Assembly (NCBI RefSeq): GCF_001425235.1
Contig: NZ_LMEA01000010.1
Span: 6,275 to 70,274, forward strand
DNA length: 64,000 bases
Reading direction: 5' to 3'
Source of the DNA: Devosia sp. Root413D1
GTDB lineage: Bacteria; Pseudomonadota; Alphaproteobacteria; Rhizobiales; Devosiaceae
Shown here piece after piece: positions 49,229 to 64,000 of the stretch. Within the stretch, counting starts at the first letter, position 1. Each line of letters begins with the position of its first letter. The translations under genes were made by a program, and so were the position numbers. Below the pieces are notes generated by a model. That model did not search any database. It worked only from the letters and a program-made list of their open reading frames with translations, and had not been told where the DNA came from.

Positions 49229-49285
49229 GGGTCAGTGCCTTGTACGTTGAATCTGCTGGTGCTTGTCGTTGGGTATGAGCGCGTG

Positions 49286-49408
49286 GCGCACCCCCTCCCA
49301 ACCTCCCCCGTCGAGGGGGAGGTGCTGTTCCGTGCTGGAAGCTCGATCGTGCCAAAGCCACCGGCCGAACACCTCCCCCGTGACGGGGGAGGTTGGGAGG
49401 GGGTGCGC
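49286..49408. repeat. GC-rich palindromic intergenic repeat, family B
   Basis: Ends GCGCACCCCCTCCC and its complement frame two AACCTCCCCCGT-type hairpins. Third full copy of family B, between the SDR and the CoA-transferase genes. Confidence 0.85.
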
Positions 49409-49451
49409 CGCCCGCTTGAGACCTCCAGTCAGCACTGCAACACCTTGCATC

Positions 49452-50216: not shown

Positions 50217-51394
50217 CAGCGTCCCACAATCTTCAGGTGGTTGCCGGAGGGGGCAGGGTACTCGTCCTCGGGCTGGCCGGAGATGGCACGAATGCGCGCT
50301 TCGCTGGCGGCGATCTCGGTTGCGCCATCGAGGATACGGAAGGTGCTGTCGTAGCGCTTCTCCTCGCCATGCTGCAGCCAGATCATCTCGCCGCGCTCCC
50401 GCGCTGCGTTGTTGCCGAGCACGTGGTTGGTCGAGGGCTCGATGCCCAGCGCATATTGCCCGGCCTGCAGGTTCTGCCATTCGTAGAGGCAGGGGAACTG
50501 CGCCTTGTCGGTTGCGACCTCGAAGCCCAGGCCGAGGCGATCATTGACCAGGGCAACGAATTGCTTGCCCTGATCATCGGTGCCGAGTTCGTGCTGCCAG
50601 ACCTGCTCGTGGAAATCGAGCTTTGGCGCGGTCAGGGTGCGATAGCCGACGCCCTGCTTTTTGTAGGCCTCGCCGACATGGGCAGCCCAGACCACGTCGC
50701 GGATCGGCGCGAGGTAGCGCGAGCCTTCGTCGAGCACCGGGTGGCCGACATTGATGTGGTAGCAGTACATGTGCGGCGTCTTGTAGAAGCCGTGGTTGAC
50801 CACCCGATCGCTGATCCGGATGTCCTTGCCGCCGACATCGGCTTCGATGCGGCGGACGAGGTGCAAGTCCTCGCCGAACACCGCCGATTGCTGCACGATA
50901 CCCTCGGCCCACAGCACGCACTCGTCGCCGCGCCACTCTTCGCCATAGCCGGTGAGCTTTGCCGGGATAGTGCCGATGCGGCCGTGCAGCGAGTGGCTGA
51001 CGGTCGGCTTGGGGCCATAGACGTAGCTGTCAGCCGGCACCTCGTTCATGAACAGGATGTGATCGAGCCCGCAGGTGACGAGCAATCCCGAGAACGAGCG
51101 GGCCCAGGCGAGGCCGCCCTCGCCTTCGTATTCATGCAGACCCGGATGGCGGAAGCCGGCCGGGGAGTTCCAGCCGATCGCCTGGCCCTTGAACTCGCAA
51201 TCGGCGATGTCGAGGGCGCGGTCGACCAAAGCGGTGAAGCGGAGGCCCGAGCCGGTGCGAAATTCGAGCATGCGGATGCCGCGCTCGACCCCATCGCTCA
51301 GTTCCATCAACCGCACGCCGGCGAACTGGCTCAGCATGCCCGCCCGCTCGGCGATCTCGCGACGGGTATAGGTCCGGCCGTTGAGCGCAACCAT
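50216..51394 (-). CDS. DUF4432 family protein (aldose 1-epimerase-like fold)
   Basis: A 392-residue protein with the DUF4432 landmarks: ALVDRALDIADCEFKGQAIGWNSPAG, the SHSLHGRIG stretch, HINVGHPVLDEG and GIEPSTNHVLG. The fold is of the galactose mutarotase type. Some relatives are thought to open or isomerise sugars or sugar lactones; none is firmly characterised to my knowledge. The ATG at 51394 follows GAGGAG. It lies next to a rhamnose mutarotase gene. Confidence 0.9.
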   Translation of the reverse strand: MVALNGRTYTRREIAERAGMLSQFAGVRLMELSDGVERGIRMLEFRTGSGLRFTALVDRALDIADCEFKGQAIGWNSPAGFRHPGLHEYEGEGGLAWARSFSGLLVTCGLDHILFMNEVPADSYVYGPKPTVSHSLHGRIGTIPAKLTGYGEEWRGDECVLWAEGIVQQSAVFGEDLHLVRRIEADVGGKDIRISDRVVNHGFYKTPHMYCYHINVGHPVLDEGSRYLAPIRDVVWAAHVGEAYKKQGVGYRTLTAPKLDFHEQVWQHELGTDDQGKQFVALVNDRLGLGFEVATDKAQFPCLYEWQNLQAGQYALGIEPSTNHVLGNNAARERGEMIWLQHGEEKRYDSTFRILDGATEIAASEARIRAISGQPEDEYPAPSGNHLKIVGR

Positions 51395-51405
51395 CGGGCG
51401 TCTCC

Positions 51406-51738
51406 TCAGTCGAGATGGTAGATTTCGGGGATCATGCTCCACCACTCGCCGGGAGCGGCGGTTTTCAGCGGCGCCTGGCAAGGGTCGGTGAGCGCCAGCC
51501 ATTGTTTGGTGATGGCGACCTCGCCGAGCGCCTTCATATCGGCCTCGTAGTCCGACCCGGCATATTCCCAGTAGCCGAACAGCAGCATTTCGGGCTCGCG
51601 CAGGTAGATCGAGTAGTTGCGGATATTGGCGGCGCTCAGCGCTGCGTTCATCTCCGGCCACGGCTCGGCGTGCAGGCGCTTGTATTCTTCGAGCTTTTCC
51701 GGCTTCACGCCGATCACCATGCCCATGCGCTGGACCAT
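51406..51738 (-). CDS. rhaM: L-rhamnose mutarotase
   Basis: A 110-residue dimeric alpha/beta barrel mutarotase that interconverts the alpha and beta anomers of L-rhamnose. Typical features are QRMGMVIGVKPEKLEEYKRLH, IRNYSIYLREPEMLLFGYWEY, and the C-terminal PGEWWSMIPEIYHLD, which carries the conserved Trp pair. Located between the importer permeases and the DUF4432 gene. The product of an L-fucose version would look alike, so L-rhamnose versus another 6-deoxysugar is not certain. Confidence 0.9.
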   Translation of the reverse strand: MVQRMGMVIGVKPEKLEEYKRLHAEPWPEMNAALSAANIRNYSIYLREPEMLLFGYWEYAGSDYEADMKALGEVAITKQWLALTDPCQAPLKTAAPGEWWSMIPEIYHLD

Positions 51739-51741
51739 AAA

Positions 51742-52656
51742 CTACTCCTTGGTGCCGCCGGCGGTCATGCCGGAAACGAGGTAGCGCTGCGCGAACAGGA
51801 AGACGAGCAGCACCGGGGCGATGGCGAGCAGCGTCGCCAGTGCCAGCGCCGACAGCGTGATGGTGGTCGAAGCCGCATTGGTGGGGTTGAAGGCGGGGAC
51901 GTTCGAGAGCAGCTCGGCAAGCCCGACCTGGATCGGCGCCTTTCGACCGGGCAGCGTCACATAGGGCAGGAAGTAGTTGTTCCAGTTGCCGGTGAAGCTG
52001 AAGAAGCCGACCAGTGCGATCACCGGGGTGGAGAGCGGCATGGCGATCTTCATGAAGACCTGCCACTCGCTCGCCCCGTCAAGGCGCGCCGCCGACAAGA
52101 GGTCGCGCGACACCGCGGTCGAGAAGTAGATGTAGGTGAGGTAGACGCCGAACGGATAGAACGAGAAGGGCAGGATGGCTGAAAGCGGGTTGCCGATCAG
52201 CCGCACCGCGCTTAGTTCGAGAAAGATTGGCAGCACCAGGGCGGTCGAGGGGATCAGCATGACGATCAGCGTCACCACCAGGAGGAGCTTCCGGCCGCGG
52301 AACTCGGTCATCGCCAGGGCGTAGCCGGCGGGGATCGAGATGCAGAGCGTGATCACCAGCGCGGCGACGCAGTAGAACACCGAGTTGCCGATCCAGGTCC
52401 AGATCAGCCCGCCCTGGAAGGTCATGAGACTCTGCCAGTTGCTCAGCAGCGTGCCGATATCGCCAAGGGCGAACGGGGCTTCGAGCAGCAGCTGGCGATC
52501 GGTCTTGGTCGGTGCGATCAGCAGCCAGAGCAGCGGCACGACGAAGAACAGCGCGAAGACGATGAGGATCAGCACGCCGAAGGCGCGGCCGAGCCAGGCG
52601 CCGGGCGTGAGGTCGCGCATGCGGGTGCCGACGATTTCGGAGTTAGGCGCGCTCAA
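51742..52656 (-). CDS. Sugar ABC importer permease (MalG/UgpE type)
   Basis: A six-segment permease with the EAA-type loop SAARLDGASEWQVFMKIAMPL and a C-terminal LFAQRYLVSGMTAGGTKE. The likely start is a TTG at 52656, preceded by AAGGGTGG and overlapping the previous stop; a GTG at 52665 and an ATG at 52620 are alternatives in the same frame. Confidence 0.92.
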   Translation of the reverse strand: MSAPNSEIVGTRMRDLTPGAWLGRAFGVLILIVFALFFVVPLLWLLIAPTKTDRQLLLEAPFALGDIGTLLSNWQSLMTFQGGLIWTWIGNSVFYCVAALVITLCISIPAGYALAMTEFRGRKLLLVVTLIVMLIPSTALVLPIFLELSAVRLIGNPLSAILPFSFYPFGVYLTYIYFSTAVSRDLLSAARLDGASEWQVFMKIAMPLSTPVIALVGFFSFTGNWNNYFLPYVTLPGRKAPIQVGLAELLSNVPAFNPTNAASTTITLSALALATLLAIAPVLLVFLFAQRYLVSGMTAGGTKE

Positions 52657-53575
52657 ACAGGCCACCCTTGAAGACGAAGTAGATGGAGAGAGCGACGGCG
52701 ACGGCCAGCAGCACCAGCGAGATCGCCGCCGAACCGTTGAAATCGTTCTGTTTGAAGGCGTAGAGGAAGGCGAGCTGGTTCAGCGAATAGTCCTGCCCGA
52801 CCACGCCACGACTGGCCTGCGCTAGGACGCGCGGCTCGACGAAGAGCTGGGTGCCGCCGGCAAAGCTCATGATCACCATGTAGGCGATCCACTTGCGCAT
52901 CAGCGGGATCTGGATCGACCAGGCAATCCGCACCGGCCCGGCGCCATCGACGCGGGCGGCCTCGATGACGTCCTTCGAGATGTTGTTGAGCGCGCCATAC
53001 ATGATGACGATCCAGCCGCCGGCGCCGGTCCAGAAGGCGATCACCGCGAGGACGACCGGCAGGCGGCTGGCGTCAACGGCGCCGACGAAGCTCTCGATGC
53101 CCAATGCCTGCAGCAGCCACGACACCGGGCTGACCGTGGGGTCGAGGACGAACAGCCAGAGCATGACGCTCGAGGCGCCGGCCAGCGCGCCCGGGATGTA
53201 ATAGACGAAGCGCATGGTGCCGGAGAACCAGCGCAAGCCAATCGAGTGGACGAGGATGGCGAGGGTCACCACCAGCACGACCAGCAGCACCAGCCAGACG
53301 ATGATGAAGATGCCGACATGCTCGACCGCCGGCCAGAACCGGTAGTCCTTGAACACTTTGAGGAAGTTGTCGAAGCCGACAAAGGCGCCCTTCTTGGTGA
53401 AGGCGAGATAGATGGCGTAGAGCGCCGGCAGGATGCCGAAGGCGATGAGGAACAGCGTGTAGGGGGTGGCGAACAGCACGCCGATACGTCCCTGCGCGCG
53501 CTCGACGCTCATGCCCTTTTTCGGGCGCTCGAGGGCGACAGCAGCAGTGGCAGCGCTATTGTCGATCGTGCTCAC
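52643..53575 (-). CDS. Sugar ABC importer permease (MalF/UgpA type)
   Basis: A 310-residue permease, six segments, with the loop IEAARVDGAGPVRIAWSIQIPL. Start GTG at 53575. Its end overlaps the start of the MalG-type gene by 14 bases. Downstream of the binding-protein gene, separated by a strong hairpin. Confidence 0.93.
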   Translation of the reverse strand: MSTIDNSAATAAVALERPKKGMSVERAQGRIGVLFATPYTLFLIAFGILPALYAIYLAFTKKGAFVGFDNFLKVFKDYRFWPAVEHVGIFIIVWLVLLVVLVVTLAILVHSIGLRWFSGTMRFVYYIPGALAGASSVMLWLFVLDPTVSPVSWLLQALGIESFVGAVDASRLPVVLAVIAFWTGAGGWIVIMYGALNNISKDVIEAARVDGAGPVRIAWSIQIPLMRKWIAYMVIMSFAGGTQLFVEPRVLAQASRGVVGQDYSLNQLAFLYAFKQNDFNGSAAISLVLLAVAVALSIYFVFKGGLFERA

Positions 53576-53648: not shown

Positions 53649-54920
53649 TCACTCGACGGTGTAGCCGACGACCTGCGCTTCGTTCTTCATTTCCTGCTGC
53701 CAGTCGGCCGACAGGTCGGTCATGGTCTTGCCGGCCGCGAGGCCGGGGGTGACGATCTTGGCCCAGGCGGTTTCGGGCGAGAAGTTGGGGTAGCCCCAGC
53801 CGTTCCAGACGCTCGAGGCGGCAGCCTGGATGGCGGCCTTGAAGTCGCCGGCATAAAAGCCGCTCGCCGCCTGCGCATCGAGCCAGGCATCGGCCGCCGC
53901 CTGGTAGGCCGGCAGGCCGCCGGTCCCCGCGACCTTGGTGTCAGAAGTGACGAACTTGAGGAAGGTCTTCACCGCCTCGGGGTTCTGGGTGTGGCTCGAG
54001 GCGTACCAGACGCCGCCACCAACGTTACCGGTGACCGCGGCGCCGTCGGCCCATTTCAGCGGCGGCGCGGCGACCCAGTCGCCGGCCTTGGCGTTGACGC
54101 CACCCGGGTTCTGAAACAGCGCGCCCGAGTACCAGGCCGGGCCAGGGATGGCGACGAGGTTGGCGGCGCTGGCGACGAAGCTGGCGCCGAACACGCTGTC
54201 GAGCGTCAGGGTCTTGTTGGCCACCATGTGGTCGATGAGGTTGGAGACCTTCACCGCATTCGGCGCTGAGGTGTCGGACTTGAAGGTCTCGCCCTCGAGC
54301 TGGAAGATCGGCGCCTCGCCGCTCCAATAGTAGATATAGGGACCCTGGAAGGCGTCGCCGAAGCCGCCGAGGAAATAGCCCGGATGCTCGGCGGCGAGCT
54401 TGTCGCCCAGCGCCTGGTACTCTTCCCAGGTGGTGGGGGCGGCGTAGCCGAACTGGTCCAGGAGGGTCTTGTTGTACCAGAACAGCACCGGCGCGAGGTC
54501 GTTACGGAGGCCATAGACCTTGCCGTCGACGGTCACCGGGTCGAGCGCGCCGGGGGTGAAGCCATCGAGGAAGGCCTGGTCGAGGAAGCCCTCGTTCAGC
54601 ACCTGGGCGAAGGCCTGCGCGCCGTTGTTCTCGCGGGCGGCCCAGGCGGCATCGTTGTTCTGGGTCGAGAAGACCACGTCCGGCCAGCCTTCATTGGCCT
54701 GGTCGGCGAGGCTGATCTTGGTCTGGAAGGTGCCCGAGGCGCCCGACGAGCCGTCGTCGAGCACCAGATTGACCGGCACTTCCGGATGGGCGGCGATGAA
54801 CGCCTCGACCGCCGGCTGGCGGGTGGCGTCGGCCCAGACGGTGATGGCACCGTCCTGGGCAAGGGCAGCGCCGGCGACGAGGATCGCCGAGAGCGCCACA
54901 GTGGTGCGCAGAAGATTCAT
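53649..54920 (-). CDS. Sugar ABC importer substrate-binding protein
   Basis: A 423-residue binding protein with a signal peptide (LLRTTVALSAILVAGAALA, cut before QDGA). CUT1 features are ITVWADATRQPAVEAFIAAHPEV, YNKTLLDQFGYAAPTTWEEYQALGDKL and the aromatic-rich IYYWSGEAPIF. The ATG at 54920 follows a GGAGGAG site. Part of an operon with two permeases but no ATPase. Confidence 0.94.
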   Translation of the reverse strand: MNLLRTTVALSAILVAGAALAQDGAITVWADATRQPAVEAFIAAHPEVPVNLVLDDGSSGASGTFQTKISLADQANEGWPDVVFSTQNNDAAWAARENNGAQAFAQVLNEGFLDQAFLDGFTPGALDPVTVDGKVYGLRNDLAPVLFWYNKTLLDQFGYAAPTTWEEYQALGDKLAAEHPGYFLGGFGDAFQGPYIYYWSGEAPIFQLEGETFKSDTSAPNAVKVSNLIDHMVANKTLTLDSVFGASFVASAANLVAIPGPAWYSGALFQNPGGVNAKAGDWVAAPPLKWADGAAVTGNVGGGVWYASSHTQNPEAVKTFLKFVTSDTKVAGTGGLPAYQAAADAWLDAQAASGFYAGDFKAAIQAAASSVWNGWGYPNFSPETAWAKIVTPGLAAGKTMTDLSADWQQEMKNEAQVVGYTVE

Positions 54921-54967: not shown

Positions 54968-56119
54968 TCAGGCCGCGCGCTGCGCCTTGGCGACGCGCGG
55001 ATTGAACGGGGCTTCGCCGAGCTCGGAGCGCGGCAACAGGTTGGGGCGGGCCCACTCGCGGCGGGCGGTTTCGTTCAGCACCAGGCCATGGCCGGGGCGA
55101 TCCGGGGCGTAGGCCCAACCGTCCTTGATCTCGACCGGCTGGTCGACCAGGTGGTCGAAATTCTGGAACGAGTATTCGAGCCACTGCACTTCGGGCAGGG
55201 CGCAGGCGGCATGGATGCCGACCTCGAGGAAGGTGTTGCCGAGGCTGACCGGAATGCCGCGGTCGGCGGCGAGCCAGCCGATGCGCATCACGTCGGTGAC
55301 CTGGCCGTGCACGTTGAGGATGTCGGTGGCGTCCTGTTCCATCAGCAGGCGCTTGCCGTGGGCATCGAGATATTCGCCCGAGTTGATCAGCGTCCAGTTG
55401 GCCGCGTCCTTCAGCATCCTGAGGCCGGCATAATCGTTGCGCAGGATCGGATCCTCGACCCAGAGCAGCTCGTGGCCGGCATCGCGGATGGCGGTGAGCT
55501 TGACCAAGGCTTCCTTGGCGCCCCAGGCCTCGTTGCTATCGATCATCACCAGGGCGTCCTTGCGGACCACCTGCTTGAGGATCTTCAGGCGGTTGAGGTC
55601 CCAGTCGAAATCCGGGTTGCCGACCTTGATCTTGAAGGCGCGGTAGCCAATCGCGTCGGCATGGGCGAAGAAACGGGCGAACTCGTCGTCCGAAAGGTGG
55701 TAGTCGAGGCCCGAGGCATAGGCCTCGACCTTGTCGCGCCGGCTGCCGAGCAGCTGGTGCAATGGCAGGTTCACCTGTTTGGCCGTGAGATCCCACAGCG
55801 CGACCTGCAGCGCCTCATGGAAGGGCAGGGTGTAGGCACGCTGGTTGCCGCCACGCGGCCGGCCGACACGATGCACCAGCCCAGCCGGCGGCTGGCCTTC
55901 GAGACCGGGCCAGGCTTCCGAGCGGAACACCCGCTCGATCTCGGCCTGATCCGGCAGCGGATAAAACAATGTCTGGATAAACCCCAGCCCGACCGCGCCG
56001 GTATCGGCAATCAGTTCGAGCGCCGCTATGTTCACATCGTCGGCGCGGACCTGGCTGTCGCCGATAACGCGGTCGCGGGCAAACTGGAAACGGGTGATGC
56101 GGAATTCGGAAATGCGCAT
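54968..56119 (-). CDS. Enolase-superfamily (MR/MLE) dehydratase or racemase
   Basis: A 383-residue mandelate racemase/muconate-lactonising type protein. The active-site lysine pair is FKIKVG, metal ligands lie in VMIDSNEAW, LWVEDP and INSGEYL, and the barrel closes with LSLGNTFLEVGIH-like strand 7. The usual catalytic His of the racemase subgroup in strand 7 is not seen where expected, so the activity may be an acid-sugar dehydratase with a single base. First gene of the minus-strand sugar operon, with the operator palindrome just upstream. Confidence 0.9.
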   Translation of the reverse strand: MRISEFRITRFQFARDRVIGDSQVRADDVNIAALELIADTGAVGLGFIQTLFYPLPDQAEIERVFRSEAWPGLEGQPPAGLVHRVGRPRGGNQRAYTLPFHEALQVALWDLTAKQVNLPLHQLLGSRRDKVEAYASGLDYHLSDDEFARFFAHADAIGYRAFKIKVGNPDFDWDLNRLKILKQVVRKDALVMIDSNEAWGAKEALVKLTAIRDAGHELLWVEDPILRNDYAGLRMLKDAANWTLINSGEYLDAHGKRLLMEQDATDILNVHGQVTDVMRIGWLAADRGIPVSLGNTFLEVGIHAACALPEVQWLEYSFQNFDHLVDQPVEIKDGWAYAPDRPGHGLVLNETARREWARPNLLPRSELGEAPFNPRVAKAQRAA

Positions 56120-56152
56120 AGGCTGGCGATCTCTGATCGACTAACATGAACA

Positions 56153-56166
56153 TCTGATATATCAGA
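56153..56166. promoter_or_regulatory. Palindromic operator candidate TGATATATCA
   Basis: A perfect 14-base palindrome TCTGATATATCAGA in the 66-base region between the divergent enolase-superfamily operon and a GntR gene. The same core occurs at 63479-63490 and, with changes, near 57749 and 57882. Confidence 0.75.
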
Positions 56167-56185
56167 CGGTGACGCTAATAGACCA

Positions 56186-56899
56186 ATGAAAGCGGGCGCA
56201 CAAGTGGCTGTGAATGAGGGTGCCGATATCGGCCTGGCCGAGGCGCAGCCGGGCGGACGGCTGAGCGATCTGGCCTATACGCGGATCCTGGAAAACCTGT
56301 TCGACCGGCGGTTGCCGGCTGGGGCCTTCGTGTCGCAGAACGATCTGGTGAAGCTGCTCGGCATCCCGGTGGCGCCGCTGCGCGATGCGCTGAGGACCCT
56401 CGAGGTCGAGGGCATCCTCACCATCCACCCGCGCTCCGGCATCCAGTTCGTCAAGCCCGGGCTCGAGCTCACCAAATCGACCTATCAGTTCCGCACCATC
56501 ATCGAGCGGGCGGCGGTGCGAGCCTTCGCCGAGCAGGGCGACGAGGACCTGATCCGCGAACTGGGCGACCGGCACCGCACCGTGTCCCGCCACATCGAGA
56601 CGTCAGGCCTCACGGCGGAGACGATGGAGGAGCTCGAGGCGCTGGAGACGCTGCTCCACAACTCGATCATCGCGATCCTCAGGAACGCGCTGATCGAGAC
56701 CAGCTACCGACGAATGCACACCTATCTCAAGCTGGTGCGGCTCGACCGCAAACTCACCGCGCCGCTGGCGCAGCGCTCGATCCGCGAGCATCTCGAGATC
56801 ATCGAAGCGTCCGAAGCGCGCGACCCCGACCGCGCCGAAGCGGCGCTGGTGGCGCATTTCAACGCGGCACTGCAGCGGCATCTCGGGATGTTTGTTTAG
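56186..56899 (+). CDS. GntR family regulator (FCD type)
   Basis: A 237-residue repressor with a winged helix near residues 30-95 (AYTRILENLFDRRLPAGAFVSQNDLVKLLG and PLRDALRTLE) and an FCD domain (TIIERAAVRAFAEQ, LHNSIIAIL, HLEIIEASEARD). Divergent from the long minus-strand sugar operon, with a palindromic operator candidate 20 bases upstream of its start, so it likely controls that operon and itself. The ligand may be the sugar acid made by the pathway. Confidence 0.92.
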   Translation: MKAGAQVAVNEGADIGLAEAQPGGRLSDLAYTRILENLFDRRLPAGAFVSQNDLVKLLGIPVAPLRDALRTLEVEGILTIHPRSGIQFVKPGLELTKSTYQFRTIIERAAVRAFAEQGDEDLIRELGDRHRTVSRHIETSGLTAETMEELEALETLLHNSIIAILRNALIETSYRRMHTYLKLVRLDRKLTAPLAQRSIREHLEIIEASEARDPDRAEAALVAHFNAALQRHLGMFV

Positions 56900-56918
56900 G
56901 GGTGGCTTAGCCGCGACA

Positions 56919-57042
56919 GACGGCCCCCTCCCATCCTCCCCCATGAAGGGGGAGGTGCCCCGCCGGTGTGTTTTGCATGATCTAAGACAGAGCCTCGACT
57001 CTTCACCTCCCCCTTCATGGGGGAGGCCGGGAGGGGGCCGTC
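56919..57042. repeat. GC-rich palindromic intergenic repeat, family B
   Basis: Same ends GACGGCC/GGCCGTC and same hairpins as the 19043 copy, with the middle (CGACTCTTCACCTC) in the opposite orientation. It lies between two convergent GntR genes. Confidence 0.85.
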
Positions 57043-57056
57043 CCTATCAGTCGGGT

Positions 57057-57710
57057 TCAGGCCGCAAACGTCCTATGCGTCGAGCCCTGGAAATGCGCTT
57101 CCATCGCCGCTATGGCGCCGGCGACGTCGCGCTGCTCGAGCGCGGTGATGACGCGCATGTGCTCGTCGACGGTATCGACCAGGTAGCCGCGGAAGCCGGG
57201 GCGGCGGTGGACGCGTTGCGCCATGCGGATGTTTTCCTGCAGGCGCTCGTGCGTATCGAGGATAGCGCGGTTACCGAGCGAGGCGACGATCTCGCGGTGC
57301 ATGCGGCCGTCGAGTTCGAGGAACGGGGTCTGTGCCGCCTCGAACGGGCTGCCATCGGTGAGGCTGATGCGGCACTTCTCGTGGTTGAGGCGCATGCCGG
57401 CGAGCCAGGCGTCGGAGACGGTGTCGCCGAAGCTTTTGAGCGCGAAAATCTCGATCATGATGCGGAACTGGTAGTTCTCGCGGATGAACGCCACCTCCGG
57501 GTAGACGATCTTGATGCCGGCGCGCGGCTTGATCTCGACCAGCCCGAATTCCTCCAGCAGCACCAGCGTTTCGCGCAGCGGCGACAGCGACAGCCCGAGC
57601 AGCTCGCAGAGTTCGGATTGGGTCACCACCATGCCGGCTTCGAGCGTGCCGTCATTCATCGCCTTGCGGAAGCGGCGGTACCCTTCGTTGTCGTTTCGGA
57701 CGTCAGACAT
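57057..57710 (-). CDS. GntR family regulator (FCD type), second
   Basis: A 217-residue repressor related to the one at 56186. Winged helix: YRRFRKAMNDGTLEAGMVVT, CELLGLSLSPLRETLVLLEE; FCD domain: IMIEIFALKSFGDTV, HREIVASLGNRAILDTHERL, HMRVITALEQRDVAGA. I use the ATG at 57710; the frame is open a little further upstream. Its promoter side carries a degenerate copy of the palindrome, and it diverges from the importer operon at 57971, so it is the nearest candidate regulator of that operon. Confidence 0.92.
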   Translation of the reverse strand: MSDVRNDNEGYRRFRKAMNDGTLEAGMVVTQSELCELLGLSLSPLRETLVLLEEFGLVEIKPRAGIKIVYPEVAFIRENYQFRIMIEIFALKSFGDTVSDAWLAGMRLNHEKCRISLTDGSPFEAAQTPFLELDGRMHREIVASLGNRAILDTHERLQENIRMAQRVHRRPGFRGYLVDTVDEHMRVITALEQRDVAGAIAAMEAHFQGSTHRTFAA

Positions 57711-57748
57711 GTTCACCGGTGAATTGGTCGAGAGGCGTGTTCGCACTT

Positions 57749-57758
57749 TAGTATATCA
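57749..57758. promoter_or_regulatory. Degenerate operator half, TAGTATATCA
   Basis: Shares the last seven bases, TATATCA, with the TGATATATCA palindrome. Located 39 bases upstream of the second GntR gene. Confidence 0.35.
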
Positions 57759-57880
57759 ACAGGCGATTTGGAAATCTCAGCAAAACGCCAGAGAACACAG
57801 GTTTCTGCGGAGCTTGCAAGCTACCAGATCACGCCTACGGGGCGTGTTGGAGGGCGTTCTGGACGAGTCGGTACCTTGAC

Positions 57881-57913
57881 TTGAGATATCATTGCCGCTC
57901 AATAATATCTCAA
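57881..57913. promoter_or_regulatory. Long inverted repeat upstream of importer operon
   Basis: TTGAGATATCATTG (57881-57894) and CAATAATATCTCAA (57900-57913) pair with one mismatch around a five-base spacer. Each arm holds a TGAGATATCA-like site, one or two bases from TGATATATCA. It ends just before the ribosome binding site of the short leader frame. Confidence 0.65.
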
Positions 57914-57925
57914 CGGAGGGGTCGC

Positions 57926-57970
57926 ATGAAGCTGGTGATGGTGTCGCGGTCGACGGGCAGGGGCTGCTAG
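57926..57970 (+). CDS. Possible 14-residue leader peptide
   Basis: ATG at 57926 sits five bases after a strong GGAGGGG and runs 14 codons (MKLVMVSRSTGRGC) to a TAG directly adjoining the GTG of the ATPase gene. It may couple translation into the ATPase gene or be the remnant of a lost gene start. Not proven as a protein. Confidence 0.35.
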   Translation: MKLVMVSRSTGRGC

Positions 57971-59086
57971 GTGGCCGCGGTCGAGCTCAAAAACGTGCGC
58001 AAGTCGTTCGGAACGGTCGACGTCATCAAGGGCGTGGACCTGACCATCGACAAGGGCGAGTTCGTGGTGTTCGTCGGCGCCTCGGGCTCGGGCAAATCGA
58101 CGCTGCTCAGGATGATCGCCGGGCTCGAGACGGTGAGCGATGGCGATATCCTGATCGACGGCAAGGACGTCACCTTTGCCGAGCCGTCGGAGCGGGGCAT
58201 CGCCATGGTGTTCCAGTCCTACGCGCTCTACCCGCACATGAACGTCTACGACAACATCGCCTTCAACCTGAAGCTGGCGCGCTTCGGCAAGGACGAGATC
58301 GACAAGCGGGTCAAGGAAGCCGCGCGGATTTTGCGGCTCAATGAGCTGCTCAGCCGTTCGCCGGCGCAGCTGTCGGGCGGCCAACGCCAGCGTGTCGCCA
58401 TCGGCCGCGCCATCGTGCGCAACCCCAAGGTGTTCCTGTTCGACGAGCCACTGTCGAACCTCGATGCGGCGTTGCGCGTGCAGATGCGGCTCGAGATCGA
58501 GCGGCTGCACCGCGAGCTCGGCACCACGATGATCTACGTGACGCATGACCAGGTGGAGGCGATGACCCTCGCCGACCGGATCGTGGCGCTCGATAATGGC
58601 CGTATCCAGCAGGTCGGGCCGCCGCTCGATCTCTATGCACGCCCCAACAACCTGTTCGTTGCCGGCTTTATCGGCTCGCCCAAGATGAACCTGTTGCCGG
58701 CCAAGGTGCTGAGCGCCGCCGACGGCAAGGCGACGATGGGGCTCGACACCAGCAGCGGAACCAAGGTCGACCTTACGACCCGCGGCGCCAGCATCGGTGA
58801 CGCGGTGACGCTCGGGGTGCGGCCGGAGACGCTGGAAGTGGTGGCCGCCGGGGCCGCGGTGCCCGCCGGGCTGACCGCGCTGCCGGCGCGGGTCGAGTCG
58901 GTCGAGCGGCTCGGCAACATCACATACGCCTATCTCGATGGAGGAACGCCGGAGGTGATCACCGTGCAGGTGATGGGCCATTCCGATCTCCAGCCGGGGC
59001 AGGAGGTCCAGGTCGGGCTGCGGTCCGACCAGGTGCACGTGTTCGACGCAGCGGGCGCCGTCATGGCGTCGGCCGTCGGCAGATAA
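57971..59086 (+). CDS. Sugar ABC importer ATPase (UgpC/MalK type)
   Basis: A 371-residue ATPase with Walker A GASGSGKST, signature LSGGQRQRVAIGR, Walker B VFLFDEPLSNLDA, H-loop IYVTHDQVEAMT and a C-terminal TOBE domain (LGVRPETLEVV). The first in its operon, starting with GTG right after the stop of a short leader frame. ATPases of this type often serve several importers, and two binding-protein/permease operons nearby have none of their own. Confidence 0.95.
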   Translation: MAAVELKNVRKSFGTVDVIKGVDLTIDKGEFVVFVGASGSGKSTLLRMIAGLETVSDGDILIDGKDVTFAEPSERGIAMVFQSYALYPHMNVYDNIAFNLKLARFGKDEIDKRVKEAARILRLNELLSRSPAQLSGGQRQRVAIGRAIVRNPKVFLFDEPLSNLDAALRVQMRLEIERLHRELGTTMIYVTHDQVEAMTLADRIVALDNGRIQQVGPPLDLYARPNNLFVAGFIGSPKMNLLPAKVLSAADGKATMGLDTSSGTKVDLTTRGASIGDAVTLGVRPETLEVVAAGAAVPAGLTALPARVESVERLGNITYAYLDGGTPEVITVQVMGHSDLQPGQEVQVGLRSDQVHVFDAAGAVMASAVGR

Positions 59087-59087
59087 A

Positions 59088-59105
59088 TCCGGCGCGAAAG
59101 CCGGA
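59088..59105 (+). other. Hairpin between ATPase and binding-protein genes
   Basis: TCCGGC-GCGAAA-GCCGGA, a six-pair stem with a stable loop, starting just after the ATPase stop. No T run follows. Confidence 0.5.
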
Positions 59106-59124
59106 CTATACAGGAGGAGAGACT

Positions 59125-60390
59125 ATGCTTCGTATAAGGACCGCCGCGCTTGCCGGCGGCGTCGCGTTGAGCCTGATGGCCGGCGCCGCGATGGCCCAGG
59201 ATGCGGTGACGCTGAACGTCTGGTCGGACACGCCGCGCCTCACCATGTTCGATCTCTATGACAAGACGCACGACAACGTGATGCTCAACGTCACCACCGT
59301 GGCGCCGGCCGACCTGATCGCCAAGATCCAGCTGGCTTTGCAGGCGAAGAGCGAAATCCCCGACGTGATCTTCATGTCGGATATCGGGTACACCGCGCAG
59401 CTCTCGACCCGCCGCTCGAACTACCTGCTCGATCTCACCGACAAGGTGCCGCAGGCGCTGCAGGACGAGTTCTACCCGAACGGCAACTCGCCCTGCCATG
59501 TGAACGGCAAGCTGCTCTGCATGCGCAACGACCTGGCGCACATGATCGTCTGGTACGACAAGCCGGCGATGGAAGCGCTCGGCAAGGCCGTGCCGACCAC
59601 CTGGGAAGAATTCCAGAAGCTCGGTGAAGAGCTGGCGCCGCAGGGCCTCAGCCTCGGCACCGGCGTCGAGGCGTTTCCGCTCTACTCCATGCTGGTCTCC
59701 GATGGCTGCGACATGGTGATGCCGGTCGAAGGCAAGGAAGACACCGTCAAGATCGATCTCACCACCGACAAGTGCCTGAAGCCGGCGCGCATGGTCGATG
59801 CGATGCTGGCCAATGGCAGCCTGACCAAGGTCGGGCCGTTCGAGCCGGATTTCGTGGCGCTCGCCAAGGGCGGCAAGATTCCGCTGATGATCGGGCCGAC
59901 CTGGTTCGGCGAATACGTGATCAAGCCGACCTATGAATGGCCGGCCGGCAAGCTCGCCGCGGCGCTGCCGCTGAAGTGGGACGACCAGAGCCAGCCGCTG
60001 ACCTGGAGCTGGGGCGGTGGCACCTATGGCGCCTGGAAGGACACGGCGCATCCGGCCGAGGCGGTCGACCTCGTCACCTGGATGTCGACCGACATCGCCA
60101 ACCAGACCGCCGCGGTGACGCTGCCGGGGCACCGGCCGTCGGCCGAAGCCTGGGGCGCGCGCCTCGCCGCTGACGCGTATTACGCCGATCCGAACGTCTT
60201 CAAGGTGGAAGCCGATGCGGCGGCGTTCAGCCATCCCGGCTATGTGAGCCTCCGCTTCTCGGTCAGCGACGCGATCGCCAAGGTGGTGGTGCAGCCGCTT
60301 TCGAGCGGCGGCACGGTGGAAGGCGCCCTGCCGGCGCTGCAGACCGAGCTGACCAACCTCGCCAAGCTCAACGGCTACCAGGTCGAATAA
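59125..60390 (+). CDS. Sugar ABC importer substrate-binding protein
   Basis: A 421-residue binding protein with a signal peptide (AALAGGVALSLMAGAAMA, cut before QDAV). CUT1 landmarks: VTLNVWSDTPRLTMFDLYDK, IPDVIFMSDIGY, LAHMIVWYDKPAMEALGKAVPTTWEEFQKL. Start ATG with GGAGGAGAG. Two cysteines occur in SPCHVNGKLLCM and SDGCDMVM/TDKCLKP contexts, likely disulfides. Confidence 0.95.
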   Translation: MLRIRTAALAGGVALSLMAGAAMAQDAVTLNVWSDTPRLTMFDLYDKTHDNVMLNVTTVAPADLIAKIQLALQAKSEIPDVIFMSDIGYTAQLSTRRSNYLLDLTDKVPQALQDEFYPNGNSPCHVNGKLLCMRNDLAHMIVWYDKPAMEALGKAVPTTWEEFQKLGEELAPQGLSLGTGVEAFPLYSMLVSDGCDMVMPVEGKEDTVKIDLTTDKCLKPARMVDAMLANGSLTKVGPFEPDFVALAKGGKIPLMIGPTWFGEYVIKPTYEWPAGKLAAALPLKWDDQSQPLTWSWGGGTYGAWKDTAHPAEAVDLVTWMSTDIANQTAAVTLPGHRPSAEAWGARLAADAYYADPNVFKVEADAAAFSHPGYVSLRFSVSDAIAKVVVQPLSSGGTVEGALPALQTELTNLAKLNGYQVE

Positions 60391-60397
60391 CGAACAG

Positions 60398-60427
60398 ACC
60401 GGACGCGTCCTGACGGGCGCGTCCGGT
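60398..60427 (+). other. Strong hairpin after the binding-protein gene
   Basis: A perfect ten-pair stem ACCGGACGCG/CGCGTCCGGT with a ten-base loop, eight bases after the stop and before the permease genes. No T run, so mRNA protection or partial attenuation is likely. Confidence 0.65.
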
Positions 60428-60445
60428 TCATGACGCGGGGCAGCA

Positions 60446-61381
60446 ATGAGCGCTACGGCAATGGCATCGGATGTGAGGGCGGCGACGAGCGATCGCGCCC
60501 GCAAGGAAAAGCAGAAGGCACGGCGCGATACGCGCATGTCGTATCTGCTGCTGGCGCCTTACCTGCTGCTGCTGATGATGTTCGGGCTGTTTCCCATCGC
60601 CTATGCCTTCGGGCTCAGCTTCTTTGACACCATCGAAATGGTGTTCTGGGGCGTCACCAACTACCAGTTCGTGTTCGACGATTTCCGCGTGCCGGCGAGC
60701 GTCGTCAATGTGCTGGCCTTCGTCGCCATCTGGGTGACCATCACCATGATCGGCGTCGCGGCGCTGTCGCTGATGCTGGACAGCATCAATCGCAAGACCG
60801 CCAATACGCTCAGGACCATCTACTTCCTCCCCGGCGCCGTCACTTCATCGGCCATCGTGGTGCTGTGGCTGTTCGTGCTCGACCCCTCGGTCAGCCCGTT
60901 CCAGCCGGTGCTGCACAGCTTGGGCTGGGGCACGCGCGCCGACGTGATCTCGGGCATCGGGCTCGCCGGGGTGTTCGCCGTGATGGCGTATTTCTCGGCT
61001 TCGGGCGGCTGGATCGTGGTGTTCGGCGGGGCGCTGTCGAGCCTCCCCACCGAGGTGATGGAGGCGGCGCGCATCGATGGCGCCAACCGCTTCCAGCTCG
61101 CCACCCGCATCAAGCTGCCGATGATCTGGCGCTCCCTGGTGCTGATGGGAATCCTGAGTTTTGCCGGCGGCCTGCAGCTCTTCGTCGAGCCGCAACTGAT
61201 GGGGCTGGCCGGGCCGCAATTCGCGCAGAACGACTGGTCGCTGAACCAGATGGCATTCCAGTACGCCTTCCGGATGGGCGATTTCGGCGCCTCGGCGGCG
61301 CTCAGTTCGCTGCTGGTCGGCTCGTCCATCGTCATCGCGCTGGTGATCGTTTTCGCCACCAAATTCTACAAGATCGATTGA
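60446..61381 (+). CDS. Sugar ABC importer permease (MalF/UgpA type)
   Basis: A 311-residue permease with six segments and the loop MEAARIDGANRFQLATRIKLPM. The cytoplasmic N-terminus is basic (RARKEKQKARRDTR). Seven bases separate it from the next permease. Confidence 0.94.
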   Translation: MSATAMASDVRAATSDRARKEKQKARRDTRMSYLLLAPYLLLLMMFGLFPIAYAFGLSFFDTIEMVFWGVTNYQFVFDDFRVPASVVNVLAFVAIWVTITMIGVAALSLMLDSINRKTANTLRTIYFLPGAVTSSAIVVLWLFVLDPSVSPFQPVLHSLGWGTRADVISGIGLAGVFAVMAYFSASGGWIVVFGGALSSLPTEVMEAARIDGANRFQLATRIKLPMIWRSLVLMGILSFAGGLQLFVEPQLMGLAGPQFAQNDWSLNQMAFQYAFRMGDFGASAALSSLLVGSSIVIALVIVFATKFYKID

Positions 61382-61388
61382 GGGCGGA

Positions 61389-62276
61389 ATGAGCAGCAGA
61401 ACCGCACCGATGCGCCTCAACCTCGGCCGTTTCGTCGTCTTTGCAACGCTGGCCTTCGCGGTGTGCTTTTACGGCATTCCGCTGCTCTGGCTGTTCATCG
61501 CCGGCACCCGCTCGGAAGCGTCGCTGCTCACCGATCCGCCGTTTGCGCTGGGCACCTGGGAAGCGTTCAGCCGCACCTGGACCAATCTCACCACCTACAA
61601 CAACTTCCAGATCCTGACCTGGGCCGGCAATTCGCTGATCTATTCGGTGGGCGGCGTGCTGCTGTCGCTGATCGCCTCGATCCCCGGCGGCTATGCGCTG
61701 GCGCAGTCGGAGTTCCCGGGCCGCAAGCTCATCCTGACGCTGACGCTGATCGCCATGATCACGCCGTCGACCGCCGTGGTGCTGCCGATCTTTCTCGAGC
61801 TGAACCTCCTCGGCCTCAGCAACACCTATGCCGGGCTGATCCTCGCGAGCGGCTTTTTCCCGTTCGGCGTCTATCTCACCTATGTCTACTTCTCGACCTC
61901 GCTGCCCAAAGGCGTGATGGATTCCGCCCGGGTCGATGGCGCCAACCGGTTCCAGCTGTTCACCCGCATCGCGCTGCCGCTGGCCCGGCCGATCATCGCG
62001 CTGGTGGCGTTCTTCAGCTTCCTCGCCATCTGGTCGAACTACTTCCTCGCCTTCGTGCTGCTCAGCGACGACAAGCTCTACAACCTGCCGGTGGGGCTGA
62101 CGGCGCTGGTGAGCGGCTCAGGCGCGCTCAGCAACCTGCCGTCCAACGATGTGCCGATCAAGAAGCCGGAGGTGGTGCTCGCCGCCATCCTCGTGGTGCT
62201 GCCGGTGCTGCTGATTTTCATGGCCGCGCAGCGGTTCGTACGCTCCGGCATGCTGTCGGGCGCGGAAAAGGGTTAG
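61389..62276 (+). CDS. Sugar ABC importer permease (MalG/UgpE type)
   Basis: A 295-residue permease, six segments, loop MDSARVDGANRFQLFTRIALPL, ending MAAQRFVRSGMLSGAEKG. The ATG follows GGCGGA. It completes the second full importer in the window. Confidence 0.94.
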   Translation: MSSRTAPMRLNLGRFVVFATLAFAVCFYGIPLLWLFIAGTRSEASLLTDPPFALGTWEAFSRTWTNLTTYNNFQILTWAGNSLIYSVGGVLLSLIASIPGGYALAQSEFPGRKLILTLTLIAMITPSTAVVLPIFLELNLLGLSNTYAGLILASGFFPFGVYLTYVYFSTSLPKGVMDSARVDGANRFQLFTRIALPLARPIIALVAFFSFLAIWSNYFLAFVLLSDDKLYNLPVGLTALVSGSGALSNLPSNDVPIKKPEVVLAAILVVLPVLLIFMAAQRFVRSGMLSGAEKG

Positions 62277-62327
62277 CGGCCAGGTCCTGCCTGGGCTGGC
62301 CGCCAAGCATCTATTTAGGAGGATTGA

Positions 62328-63482
62328 ATGAAGATCACGGGGTTCACGGCATGGCTGGTCGAGCACGAGCCGGGACCGAAATTCATCTGGCGCGACGGCA
62401 TTCCCGGTTCGCACGGTGACATTCCGCGTGGCTCCAAGCCGCATAAGGCGGTGATCCGCATGGAGACCGATGCCGGAATCGACGGCGTCATCGAGATGGG
62501 CCGCGGCGAGGCGGTGATCGACCTAGTGCGCCGCCGCTACCACGAGTTCATCGGCGAGAACCCGCTGCTCACCGAACGGATGTGGCGGCTGATCTGGGAG
62601 ATCGACCGGATCGAGGAGATCCACATGCGGCACCTCGGCATGCTCGACATGCTGTGCTGGGACGTCAAATCGCAGCACGCCAAGATGCCGATCTACCAGA
62701 TGCTGGGCGGCGACAACCGGGTGGTGCCGGCCTACGCCTCGACAGTCACCTGGCCGACGATGGACGAGTACGAGCGCTACATCAAAATGAGCCGCGATGT
62801 CGGCTTCAAGGCGTTCAAGCTGCATGCCTGGGGCGGCCCGGTGAAGCGCGACATTGAGCTCTGCAAGAACCTTCGCAAGTGGGTCGGGCCCGATGCGGAC
62901 CTGATGTTCGACGGCTCGGCCGGCTGGGACTATGTCAACGCGCTGGAGTTCGGCAAGGCGATCCAGGATCTCGGCTTCCTCTGGTACGAGGAGCCGATGC
63001 GCGAGTTCCATCTCGGGGCCTACACCAAGCTCTGCGAGAAGCTCGATATCCCGATCCTCGCCGCCGAAACCTCGGACGGCGTACATGGCAACATGGCGAC
63101 CTGGATCGAGAACAAGGCGCTCGACATGACGCGCGTCTCGACCTTCTACAAGGGCGGTTACACCGGCTCGATGAAGGTGGCGCATCTGAGCGAAAGCCAC
63201 GGCATGCGGGCCCAGGTGCATGGCATGGGGCTGGAGAACGCGCAGATCTGCGCCGCCATCTCGAACAACGACTATTATGAGCAGCTCGTGATGAACGAGG
63301 AGCAGATCAAGGGCCTCGACAAGCTCGGGCCGCTCGCGATCGTCGATGGCGACCTGACGGTCAGCGACGAGCCGGGCATCGGTTACGAGTTCGACTTCAA
63401 GAAACTCGACGAGACGGCCCTGACGAAGGTCTCAGTCAGCGAACGGTTGACGCCGCGTGGGGCTGAGGTACCATGGCACTGA
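62328..63482 (+). CDS. Enolase-superfamily (MR/MLE) enzyme, second
   Basis: A 384-residue member of the mandelate racemase/muconate-lactonising group. Metal ligands lie in LMFDGSAGW, LWYEEPM and LAAETSDG. The first active-site lysine motif reads FKLHAWG, so KxH instead of the common KxK, which usually marks a subgroup with its own substrate. HGMRAQVHGMG provides a His in strand 7. A GGAGG site precedes the ATG. Last gene of the importer operon, and its stop overlaps the operator palindrome of the next unit. An acid-sugar dehydratase is the likely role. Confidence 0.9.
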   Translation: MKITGFTAWLVEHEPGPKFIWRDGIPGSHGDIPRGSKPHKAVIRMETDAGIDGVIEMGRGEAVIDLVRRRYHEFIGENPLLTERMWRLIWEIDRIEEIHMRHLGMLDMLCWDVKSQHAKMPIYQMLGGDNRVVPAYASTVTWPTMDEYERYIKMSRDVGFKAFKLHAWGGPVKRDIELCKNLRKWVGPDADLMFDGSAGWDYVNALEFGKAIQDLGFLWYEEPMREFHLGAYTKLCEKLDIPILAAETSDGVHGNMATWIENKALDMTRVSTFYKGGYTGSMKVAHLSESHGMRAQVHGMGLENAQICAAISNNDYYEQLVMNEEQIKGLDKLGPLAIVDGDLTVSDEPGIGYEFDFKKLDETALTKVSVSERLTPRGAEVPWH

Positions 63483-63490
63483 TATATCAG
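63479..63490. promoter_or_regulatory. Palindromic operator candidate TGATATATCA, second copy
   Basis: CTGATATATCAG, identical to the core at 56154-56165, overlaps the stop codon of the enolase-superfamily gene and lies 37 bases before the next binding-protein gene. Confidence 0.7.
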
Positions 63491-63526
63491 ATTACGTAAC
63501 TGAGCTATCATTGGGAGGAGAGACTT

Positions 63527-64000
63527 ATGACGGCCAAGTTCGATAGACGATCAGTCCTGAAGCTGGGCGGCGGTATGCTGGCCGCTTCGGCGCTGCTGCC
63601 GCACCAGGCGTTCGCCCAGCAGACGGCGATCAACTACTGGCACACCTTCACCAGCCAGTCGGAAGCTGCAGGGTTGCAGGCGGTGCTCGACCTGTTCAAG
63701 GCCGCGCATCCCGACGTTGCAGTGACGCCCGAGAACATCCCCAATCCCGAGTTCATGGCCAAGATCACCGCGGCCGTGGTCGGCGGCAGCCGCCCGAACG
63801 TGACGATGGTTTCGTCCGAGCGCTTCGAGGACCTGCTCGCCATGGGCGCGCTCAGCGACATGACCGACCGCATTGCCGGCTGGGAGCGGCGTGGCGACTT
63901 CGACGACAAGCGTTTCGCCTCGATCACCAAGGACGGCAAGACCTATGGCGTGCCGGGCTTCACGTTCGTGGACTGGGGCTACTATCGCAAGGACTGGTTC
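63527..64000 (+). CDS. Sugar ABC importer substrate-binding protein, 3' part outside window
   Basis: The first 158 residues of a CUT1 binding protein. It opens with a twin-arginine leader (FDRRSVLKLGGGMLAAS, cleavage after FAQ) and continues INYWHTFTSQSEAAGLQAVLDLF, KITAAVVGGSRPNVTMVSSERFEDLLAMGAL, YGVPGFTFVDWGYYRKDWF, all typical. GGGAGGAG precedes the ATG. The operator palindrome upstream suggests control together with the other sugar operons. Permeases probably follow outside the window. Confidence 0.92.
   Translation, partial: MTAKFDRRSVLKLGGGMLAASALLPHQAFAQQTAINYWHTFTSQSEAAGLQAVLDLFKAAHPDVAVTPENIPNPEFMAKITAAVVGGSRPNVTMVSSERFEDLLAMGALSDMTDRIAGWERRGDFDDKRFASITKDGKTYGVPGFTFVDWGYYRKDWF

What the first reader, a model, noticed from the sequence alone, without database searches (positions are those of the whole stretch)
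56153..63490. Shared palindrome TGATATATCA in front of four sugar-uptake units
The exact palindrome CTGATATATCAG occurs at 56154-56165 (between the minus-strand sugar operon and a GntR gene) and at 63479-63490 (before the last binding-protein gene). Near copies are at 57882-57891 (TGAGATATCA, as part of a 33-base inverted repeat before the ATPase gene) and 57749-57758 (before the second GntR gene). Two GntR/FCD regulators lie in the same 2 kb. This looks like one small regulon, linking two enolase-superfamily enzymes and three importers to a common sugar-acid signal.
Basis: partly seen in the sequence, partly recalled or inferred. Interest (0 to 1): 0.6.

Follow-up and report, generated by a model that had tools for sequence, protein, structure and literature searches.

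The report
Two sugar-acid regulators, two operators
A short mirror-image DNA word marks the likely switch sites of one sugar-acid gene regulator in a Devosia-type soil bacterium, and a neighbouring look-alike site belongs to a second, related regulator; both kinds of site tend to come in copies two DNA turns (21 bases) apart, which suggests that regulator pairs bind side by side.

Summary
The palindrome is real, but it marks two regulators, not one. CTGATATATCAG occurs only three times in the 5.85-Mb genome, all within about 18 kb: window 56154, window 63479, and 10.3 kb beyond the window. It is most likely the operator of GntR1 (56186-56899). A match of 11 or 12 of 12 lies upstream of 25 of 33 GntR1 orthologues, against 0.8% of random windows. 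In the genus the exact word occurs in the 9 of 19 genomes with GntR1 plus one incomplete assembly. Weaker second copies lie exactly 21 bp away in 16 of 21 non-redundant gntR1 promoters and at the 63479-type site in 8 of 8 aligned, partly near-identical loci. The near copy at 57882 is something else: half of a 31-bp dyad, TGAGATAT-N15-ATATCTCA, most likely the operator of GntR2. The dyad occurs once in each of 11 of 19 genomes, all GntR2 carriers, 4 of them without GntR1. The 57749 near copy is not conserved as a palindrome and looks like the gntR2 -10 box. Binding, effector and cooperativity are inferred.

The parts
56154..56165 (.). S1: exact palindrome CTGATATATCAG, GntR1 operator between the divergent MLE1 operon and gntR1
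   Evidence: 11 or 12 of 12 match upstream of 25 of 33 GntR1 orthologues; MLE1 divergent and adjacent in 29 of 33
56133..56144 (.). S1 weaker flanking copy at -21 bp (CTGATCGACTAA)
   Evidence: 21 is by far the preferred distance (16 of 21 promoters at +21 or -21)
56175..56186 (.). S1 weaker flanking copy at +21 bp (CTAATAGACCAA), reaching the gntR1 start codon
63479..63490 (.). S3: exact palindrome CTGATATATCAG, GntR1 operator before the third importer operon; contains the TGA stop of MLE2 (63480-63482)
63500..63511 (.). S3 partner copy at +21 bp (CTGAGCTATCAT)
   Evidence: TGARCKATCA at the same spacing in 8 of 8 aligned loci, four of them near-identical
57882..57912 (.).
   Evidence: both arms exact in 12 of 13 GntR2 loci of 65-100% identity and one substitution in the 13th, L121; once per genome in 11 of 19 genomes, all GntR2 carriers; TTGAC in 11 of 11 aligned
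57749..57758 (.). TAGTATATCA: not conserved as a palindrome; on the minus strand it holds TATACT, a likely -10 of gntR2 (inference)
56186..56899 (+). GntR1: GntR/FCD regulator, predicted to bind CTGATATATCAG
   Evidence: Pfam GntR and FCD over cut-off
57057..57710 (-). GntR2: GntR/FCD regulator (start 57710 or 57746), predicted to bind S2
   Evidence: Pfam GntR and FCD over cut-off; 31% identical to GntR1
54968..56119 (-). MLE1: enolase-superfamily enzyme, first gene of the GntR1-controlled minus-strand operon
   Evidence: Pfam MR_MLE_C; closest solved chain 2oz8, Mll7089
53649..54899 (-). probable solute-binding protein of importer 1 (assigned by place and look; no Pfam match)
51742..53575 (-). 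two permease genes of importer 1 (51742-52665 and 52643-53575)
   Evidence: Pfam BPD_transp_1
47268..51738 (-). rest of the MLE1 operon: rhaM-type mutarotase 51406-51738, DUF4432 50216-51391, SDR 49452-50195, CoA transferase 48035-49228, enoyl-CoA hydratase 47268-48038
   Evidence: same order in L011, L012, L013, L015, L042
57971..63482 (+). GntR2-controlled operon: importer ATPase, binding protein, two permeases, MLE2 (62328-63482)
   Evidence: GntR2 lies next to the ATPase or MLE2 gene in 13 of 13 loci
63527..64000 (+). importer 3 operon (binding protein; continues beyond the window), GntR1-controlled through S3

Best explanation
The locus holds two neighbouring regulons, each run by its own GntR/FCD regulator. 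GntR1 dimers bind CTGATATATCAG at S1, S3 and S4. S1 is the promoter region shared by gntR1 and the MLE1 importer/catabolic operon. S3 precedes the third importer operon. S4 lies beyond the window, between an amidohydrolase gene and a Gfo/Idh/MocA, MaoC, CoA-transferase operon. GntR2 binds S2, a 31-bp dyad that starts just behind the -35-like box of the operon for importer 2 and MLE2. At S1, S2 and S3 recognition boxes lie 21 bp apart, two helical turns, so that two or more dimers would sit side by side on one face of the DNA. A sugar acid or its lactone from the substrate pathway, bound in the metal-binding FCD domain, would release repression. Shown: rarity, positions, conservation, co-occurrence of each operator with its regulator gene, and the preferred 21-bp spacing. 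Inferred: actual binding, repression rather than activation, cooperativity, effector.
For: Genome rarity: 3 exact sites, all in about 18 kb; TGADATATCA at 4 places, all here. Four one-mismatch sites lie elsewhere: three inside genes, and one 22 bp into a predicted ORF of uncertain start and 100 bp upstream of another GntR/FCD gene. GntR1 link: best match 12/12 in 8, 11/12 in 17, 10/12 in 3, 9/12 in 3, 8/12 in 1 and 7/12 in 1 of 33 orthologue promoters; 11 or more occurs in 0.8% of random windows and 0.06% of shuffles. Genus co-occurrence: 9 of 9 carriers and 1 of 10 others, the exception being an 82%-complete assembly with its two sites at the S3 and S4 places. GntR2 link: the dyad occurs once in each of 11 of 12 carriers and in 0 of 7 others. 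Spacing: 16 of 21 promoters have a second site above 3 bits at +21 or -21 and 5 of 21 at +42 or -42; the mean over the 72 distances other than 21 is 0.2. Control: 12 exact sites in loci of other GntR subfamilies have no partner at 21. The metal-ligand pattern E/D-x3-H, H, H is kept in 34 of 34 GntR1 rows (pattern recalled).
Against: No binding or expression data. S4 has no partner at 21 bp. L039 and L041 have no good site (7 and 8 of 12), and a 9 of 12 match (L019, L022, L040) is near chance level, 4-5%. L018, L019, L023, L035 and L040 lack a 21-bp partner above 3 bits. Two more distant GntR2 relatives (45%, L109 and L110) do not show the S2 dyad. The exact word also stands before other GntR/FCD genes in other families, so the motif alone does not identify GntR1; outside the genus only 2 of 14 GntR1 carriers have the exact word, on other contigs. 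The genome holds 42 FCD matches. The counts are not phylogenetically independent, and at least six of the 19 genus genomes are the same assemblies as loci in the 33 (equal contig lengths).
Confidence: 0.83

Rival explanations
1. One common regulon: all sites, S2 and 57749 included, are variants of one operator read by one or both GntR proteins.
For: S2's left half in this genome is one mismatch from the palindrome. The two regulators are 31% identical and lie side by side. In L014 and L021 MLE2 has a GntR1-type site.
Against: S2 keeps its own arms TGAGATAT/ATATCTCA while its inner bases vary. It persists in 4 genomes lacking both GntR1 and the palindrome (G001, G011, G014, G015). The 57749 word is not conserved as a palindrome.
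Confidence: 0.12
2. Generic FCD-family operator: CTGATATATCAG is bound by another of the FCD paralogues, not by GntR1.
For: Other GntR/FCD subfamilies have the exact word at their own genes. The genome has 42 FCD matches.
Against: In the genus the word follows GntR1 gene content. In this genome it is absent outside this locus. It or a one- to three-mismatch form stands at gntR1 out to Sphingomonadales and Azospirillaceae.
Confidence: 0.05
3. The 21-bp partners are promoter or other conserved elements, and single dimers act alone at each palindrome. (Not exclusive of the two-regulon reading.)
For: S4 stands alone. The partner copies are weaker. Five of 21 promoters have none.
Against: Partners share the palindrome's sequence pattern. 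Distance 21 stands out against 72 other distances, in the Devosia-like (7 of 8) and the other (9 of 13) promoters. S2 has the same 21-bp box spacing in a different sequence.
Confidence: 0.3

Closest known systems
FadR/FCD subfamily of GntR regulators and their divergons (Suvorova et al. 2015, PMC4494728; abstract, passages and sections 10, 16, 17 seen)
   Same: GntR HTH plus FCD domain; palindromic operator in a divergent promoter with the regulator gene; double sites with constant distance are reported there as probably cooperative.
   Different: The operator core is TGAT..ATCA, not the TKGT/ACMA type. Their extra half-sites are 7-12 nt from the site centre; here whole weaker copies lie at 21 bp. 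I did not see the distances of their double sites.
E. coli NanR (PMC8012715; abstract and passages seen)
   Same: GntR-type repressor of sugar-acid uptake and breakdown; several dimers on a repeated operator.
   Different: NanR uses (GGTATA)3 direct repeats and an N-terminal extension, and is described there as unique among reported GntR mechanisms. Here near-palindromic boxes are 21 bp apart; no such extension was tested.
Mll7089 of Mesorhizobium loti (2oz8)
   Same: Clear homologue of MLE1 (632 bits).
   Different: One paper holding 2oz8 was listed and not read; no function is known to me.
Sugar-acid GntR regulons of Halomonas (PMC5507952; passages seen)
   Same: GntR regulators tied to galactarate/glucarate and uronate operons by comparative genomics.
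   Different: Other organisms and regulators; no motif sequence was seen in the passages.

Membership tests
GntR family, FadR/FCD subfamily | N-terminal GntR winged HTH | tested here: met
   PF00392 over cut-off in both regulators
GntR family, FadR/FCD subfamily | C-terminal FCD domain | tested here: met
   PF07729 over cut-off in both
GntR family, FadR/FCD subfamily | FCD metal-ligand residues (D/E, H, H, H; recalled) | tested here: met
   GntR1 rows 34 of 34 (E 29, D 5; H at all three); GntR2 rows 11 of 13 with D at the acidic position, two of the 13 rows having a wrong reading frame
GntR family, FadR/FCD subfamily | Operator with TKGT/ACMA boxes (common consensus, not a strict requirement) | tested here: not met
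   Operator core is TGAT/ATCA (GntR1) or TGAG/CTCA (GntR2); the source paper names members with other motifs, such as NanR and BioR
NanR-type cooperative operator | Direct GGTATA repeats | tested here: not met
   Boxes are near-palindromes 21 bp apart
NanR-type cooperative operator | Several dimers bind cooperatively | not testable with these tools
   Only the spacing is shown
L-fucose/L-rhamnose oxidative pathway genes | Pathway enzymes at curated family cut-offs | tested here: not met
   Best matches stay below cut-off: L025 hydrolase 408.9 of 500, L025 lactonase 123.2 of 400, amidohydrolase beside S4 96.9 of 400 bits

The most novel reading that the evidence does not exclude
GntR1 and GntR2 are a class of FCD regulators that assemble two or three dimers on operators phased at 21 bp (two helical turns), a cooperative mode distinct from NanR's, on TGAT/ATCA and TGAG/CTCA cores instead of the usual GT/AC core.
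Probability: 0.5. Interest if true: 0.5.

Novelty: new member of a known kind. Interest (0 to 1): 0.38.

Why it matters
It gives testable operators for two regulators on which I found no paper, in a sugar-acid locus of unassigned substrate. It shows how a look-alike site can merge two regulons by eye. The preferred 21-bp operator spacing is a possible further case of multi-dimer assembly in GntR/FCD regulators.

Tried and rejected
Residue-operator covariation: residue 39 of the HTH (A or Q; numbering is my own fit to PMC4494728) follows the central operator bases almost fully. The tree puts all Q rows in one clade (one change), and L021 has A39 with the Q-type operator, so it is a single event and no proof. 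Loss of Arg at position 28 was considered as the reason for the TGAT core; only 4 of 30 FCD paralogues looked at (of 42 matches) have Arg there, so it does not discriminate.

Searching the motif in print: TGATATATCA occurs in 30 papers, and none of the 20 listed titles names a GntR regulator; CTGATATATCAG in one paper, where it is part of a PCR primer. Searches for Devosia GntR regulons, for an enolase/GntR/CoA-transferase locus, and for 2oz8/Mll7089 gave nothing on this locus by title or abstract. A six-term search on tandem cooperative operators returned nothing.

At order level the exact word is in 59 of 347 genomes and GntR1 in 15 of 347. Of the 14 carriers other than this genome only 2 have the exact word (G139, G327), each on another contig; named loci of such genera show changed forms such as CTGATAGATCAG or CTGAAATATCAG. 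So the exact word is a marker only within the genus. A class-level search for GntR2 found it in 1 of 385 genomes, this one.

Known errors in my scripts, not used: SBP_L8_16621 was translated with a wrong start (8 stops); one search printed translations of the wrong strand; two GntR2 rows (L118, L119) had a wrong frame; my simple gene finder makes some over-long or overlapping calls. No structure prediction was run.
Full report
Setting. The window lies on contig C10 (window 1 = C10:6275) of a 5.85-Mb genome. Its nearest named relatives by GntR1 are Devosia sp. 66-14 and Devosia insulae, at 97 and 96% identity.

Sites. S1 (56154-56165) and S3 (63479-63490) are exact CTGATATATCAG. A third exact copy, S4, lies at C10:80578 beyond the window. 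It sits between an amidohydrolase gene, whose TGA stop is inside the palindrome, and a Gfo/Idh/MocA gene followed by MaoC and CoA-transferase genes. S3 likewise contains the TGA stop of MLE2. No other exact copy exists in the genome. Four one-mismatch copies exist elsewhere. My gene finder puts all four inside predicted ORFs; for one of them (C12:3020) the ORF start is uncertain, the site being 22 bp into it and 100 bp upstream of another GntR/FCD gene.

GntR1 and the palindrome. One search gave 54 loci. I used the 33 with 45-97% identity (L011-L043) and left out the 21 more distant ones (L044-L064). The best match within 200 bp upstream (to 20 bp inside) is 12/12 in 8, 11/12 in 17, 10/12 in 3, 9/12 in 3, 8/12 in 1 and 7/12 in 1. 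Random windows of the same loci reach 11 or more in 0.8% and shuffles in 0.06%; 9 of 12 alone occurs in 4-5% and says little. MLE1 is the divergent neighbour in 29 of 33. In 19 genomes of the genus GntR1 is present in 9. The exact word is present in those 9 and in G010, an 82%-complete assembly in which both copies lie at the S3 and S4 places. Of the 21 exact sites in the genus, 8 are S1-type, 7 S3-type and 5 S4-type, those of G004 other than S1 and the S4-type one of G007 assigned by spacing alone; the remaining one lies 114 bp upstream of a chemotaxis-receptor gene in G013. Fisher p is 1.2e-4, without correction for kinship.

The motif is not private to GntR1. In the wider order the word occurs in 59 of 347 genomes. 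I looked at 14 stretches from the 58 genomes other than this one. In 9 a GntR homologue lies at the word: 26-80 bp upstream in 7 (L087, L088, L089, L093, L094, L095, L097), 243 bp in L092, and within an over-long predicted ORF in L096. In 5 none was found (L090, L091, L098, L099, L100).

GntR2 and S2. The site at 57882 is half of TGAGATAT-N15-ATATCTCA. In 13 GntR2 loci of 65-100% identity (12 of the genus, 1 of another genus of the family) both arms are exact in 12, and one arm has one substitution in the 13th (L121); the dyad is 31 bp long in each. A genus-wide search found the dyad once in each of 11 of 19 genomes. All 11 are among the 12 genomes with a GntR2 of 69% identity or more; the 12th is G016 with the variant arm. 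itself counts 13 of 19 because a 32%-identical paralogue in G006 passes its threshold. Four of the 11 (G001, G011, G014, G015) have neither GntR1 nor the palindrome; G001 is 87% complete. Two relatives at 45% identity in another family (L109, L110) lack the dyad. In 11 aligned promoters TTGAC stands one base before the dyad, the place expected for a repressor (inference). Inside the dyad the bases after TGAGATAT vary (CA, TA, TT), so the resemblance to TGATATATCA in this genome is probably incidental.

The 57749 word. Aligned GntR2 promoters keep CTTTAGT-like letters in part but not a palindrome. On the minus strand the word holds TATACT, a likely -10 box of gntR2 (inference).

The 21-bp grammar. 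In 21 non-redundant GntR1 promoters (of 31 with a site of 9/12 or more) a second site above 3 bits lies at +21 or -21 in 16 and at +42 or -42 in 5; the mean over the 72 distances other than 21 is 0.2. It holds in 7 of 8 Devosia-like and 9 of 13 other promoters. S3-type sites have a partner at +21 in 8 of 8 aligned loci, of which this genome, L011, L012 and L102 are near-identical. The two boxes of S2 are also 21 bp apart, centre to centre. S4 has no partner. Twelve exact sites in loci of other GntR subfamilies have none either, the best having 5 of 12 matches at that distance. Two helical turns place dimers on one face of the DNA, so cooperative binding is likely but not shown. In the literature read, constant-distance double sites and extra half-sites at 7-12 nt are described for the subfamily (PMC4494728, sections 16 and 17), and multi-dimer cooperative assembly for NanR (PMC8012715, passages). 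The subfamily paper took its control pseudoboxes at -20 and -21 nt (section 17).

Genes. S1 serves MLE1 (MR_MLE), a probable binding protein without Pfam match, two permeases, a rhaM-type mutarotase, DUF4432, SDR, CoA transferase and enoyl-CoA hydratase, and divergently gntR1. S2 serves an ATPase, binding protein, two permeases and MLE2. S3 serves a third binding protein, two permeases, an ATPase and a 631-aa protein without Pfam match. S4 serves Gfo/Idh/MocA, MaoC, CoA transferase and a binding-protein-like protein. Operon membership is by order and strand only. In Sphingomonas and Azospirillaceae relatives the word or a one- to two-mismatch form stands before DUF4432, aldo/keto-reductase or FAA-hydrolase genes, and a lactonase homologue is nearby. 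This points to an oxidative deoxy-sugar or sugar-acid route; family scores stay under the curated cut-offs, so the substrate is open.

Rewiring. In L014 and L021 MLE2 has GntR1-type sites upstream (L021 with two, 21 bp apart) and no gntR2 was matched in the fetched stretch, whereas in this genome MLE2 lies in the GntR2 operon.

Verdict. The interpretation needs splitting into a GntR1 regulon and a GntR2 regulon. Both are ordinary in kind; the operator spacing is the unusual part.

Noticed in passing
L008:16621-17685 (C10, beyond the window) and L035:5354-6490: A binding-protein-like gene (SBP_bac_8 match) that by eye seems to lack a signal peptide sits beside CoA-transferase genes, also in a Sphingomonas locus, which suggests a cytosolic role.
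   Followed up: partly
window 47268-49228 and L008:17730-19450: Two CoA transferases (CoA_transf_3), an enoyl-CoA hydratase and a MaoC protein lie in a sugar-acid regulon; CoA chemistry is unexpected in such a pathway.
   Followed up: partly
L008:14077-15972: A 631-aa protein in the importer 3 operon has no Pfam match and no NCBIfam match at E 1e-20; four relatives hold it at 81-96% identity.
   Followed up: partly
L009:2540-2558: Upstream of the S4 operon a second inverted repeat (TGTGAAT..ATTTCACA) is kept in L104, nearly so in L101 and in a changed form in L013.
   Followed up: no
L110:1289-1321: Near a GntR2-like gene (45%) of another family the words TTGATATTTCAG and TAGATATATCTA also stand 21 bp apart.
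   Followed up: no
L092, L093, L094: A GntR/FCD locus in another family of the order has two exact palindromes about 9-11 kb apart plus a near copy at 55 bp, apparently an unrelated regulon using the same word.
   Followed up: partly
window 57771-57779: GAAATCTCA, or its last eight letters, is kept in 7 of 11 aligned gntR2 promoters and may be a GntR2 half-site for autoregulation.
   Followed up: no
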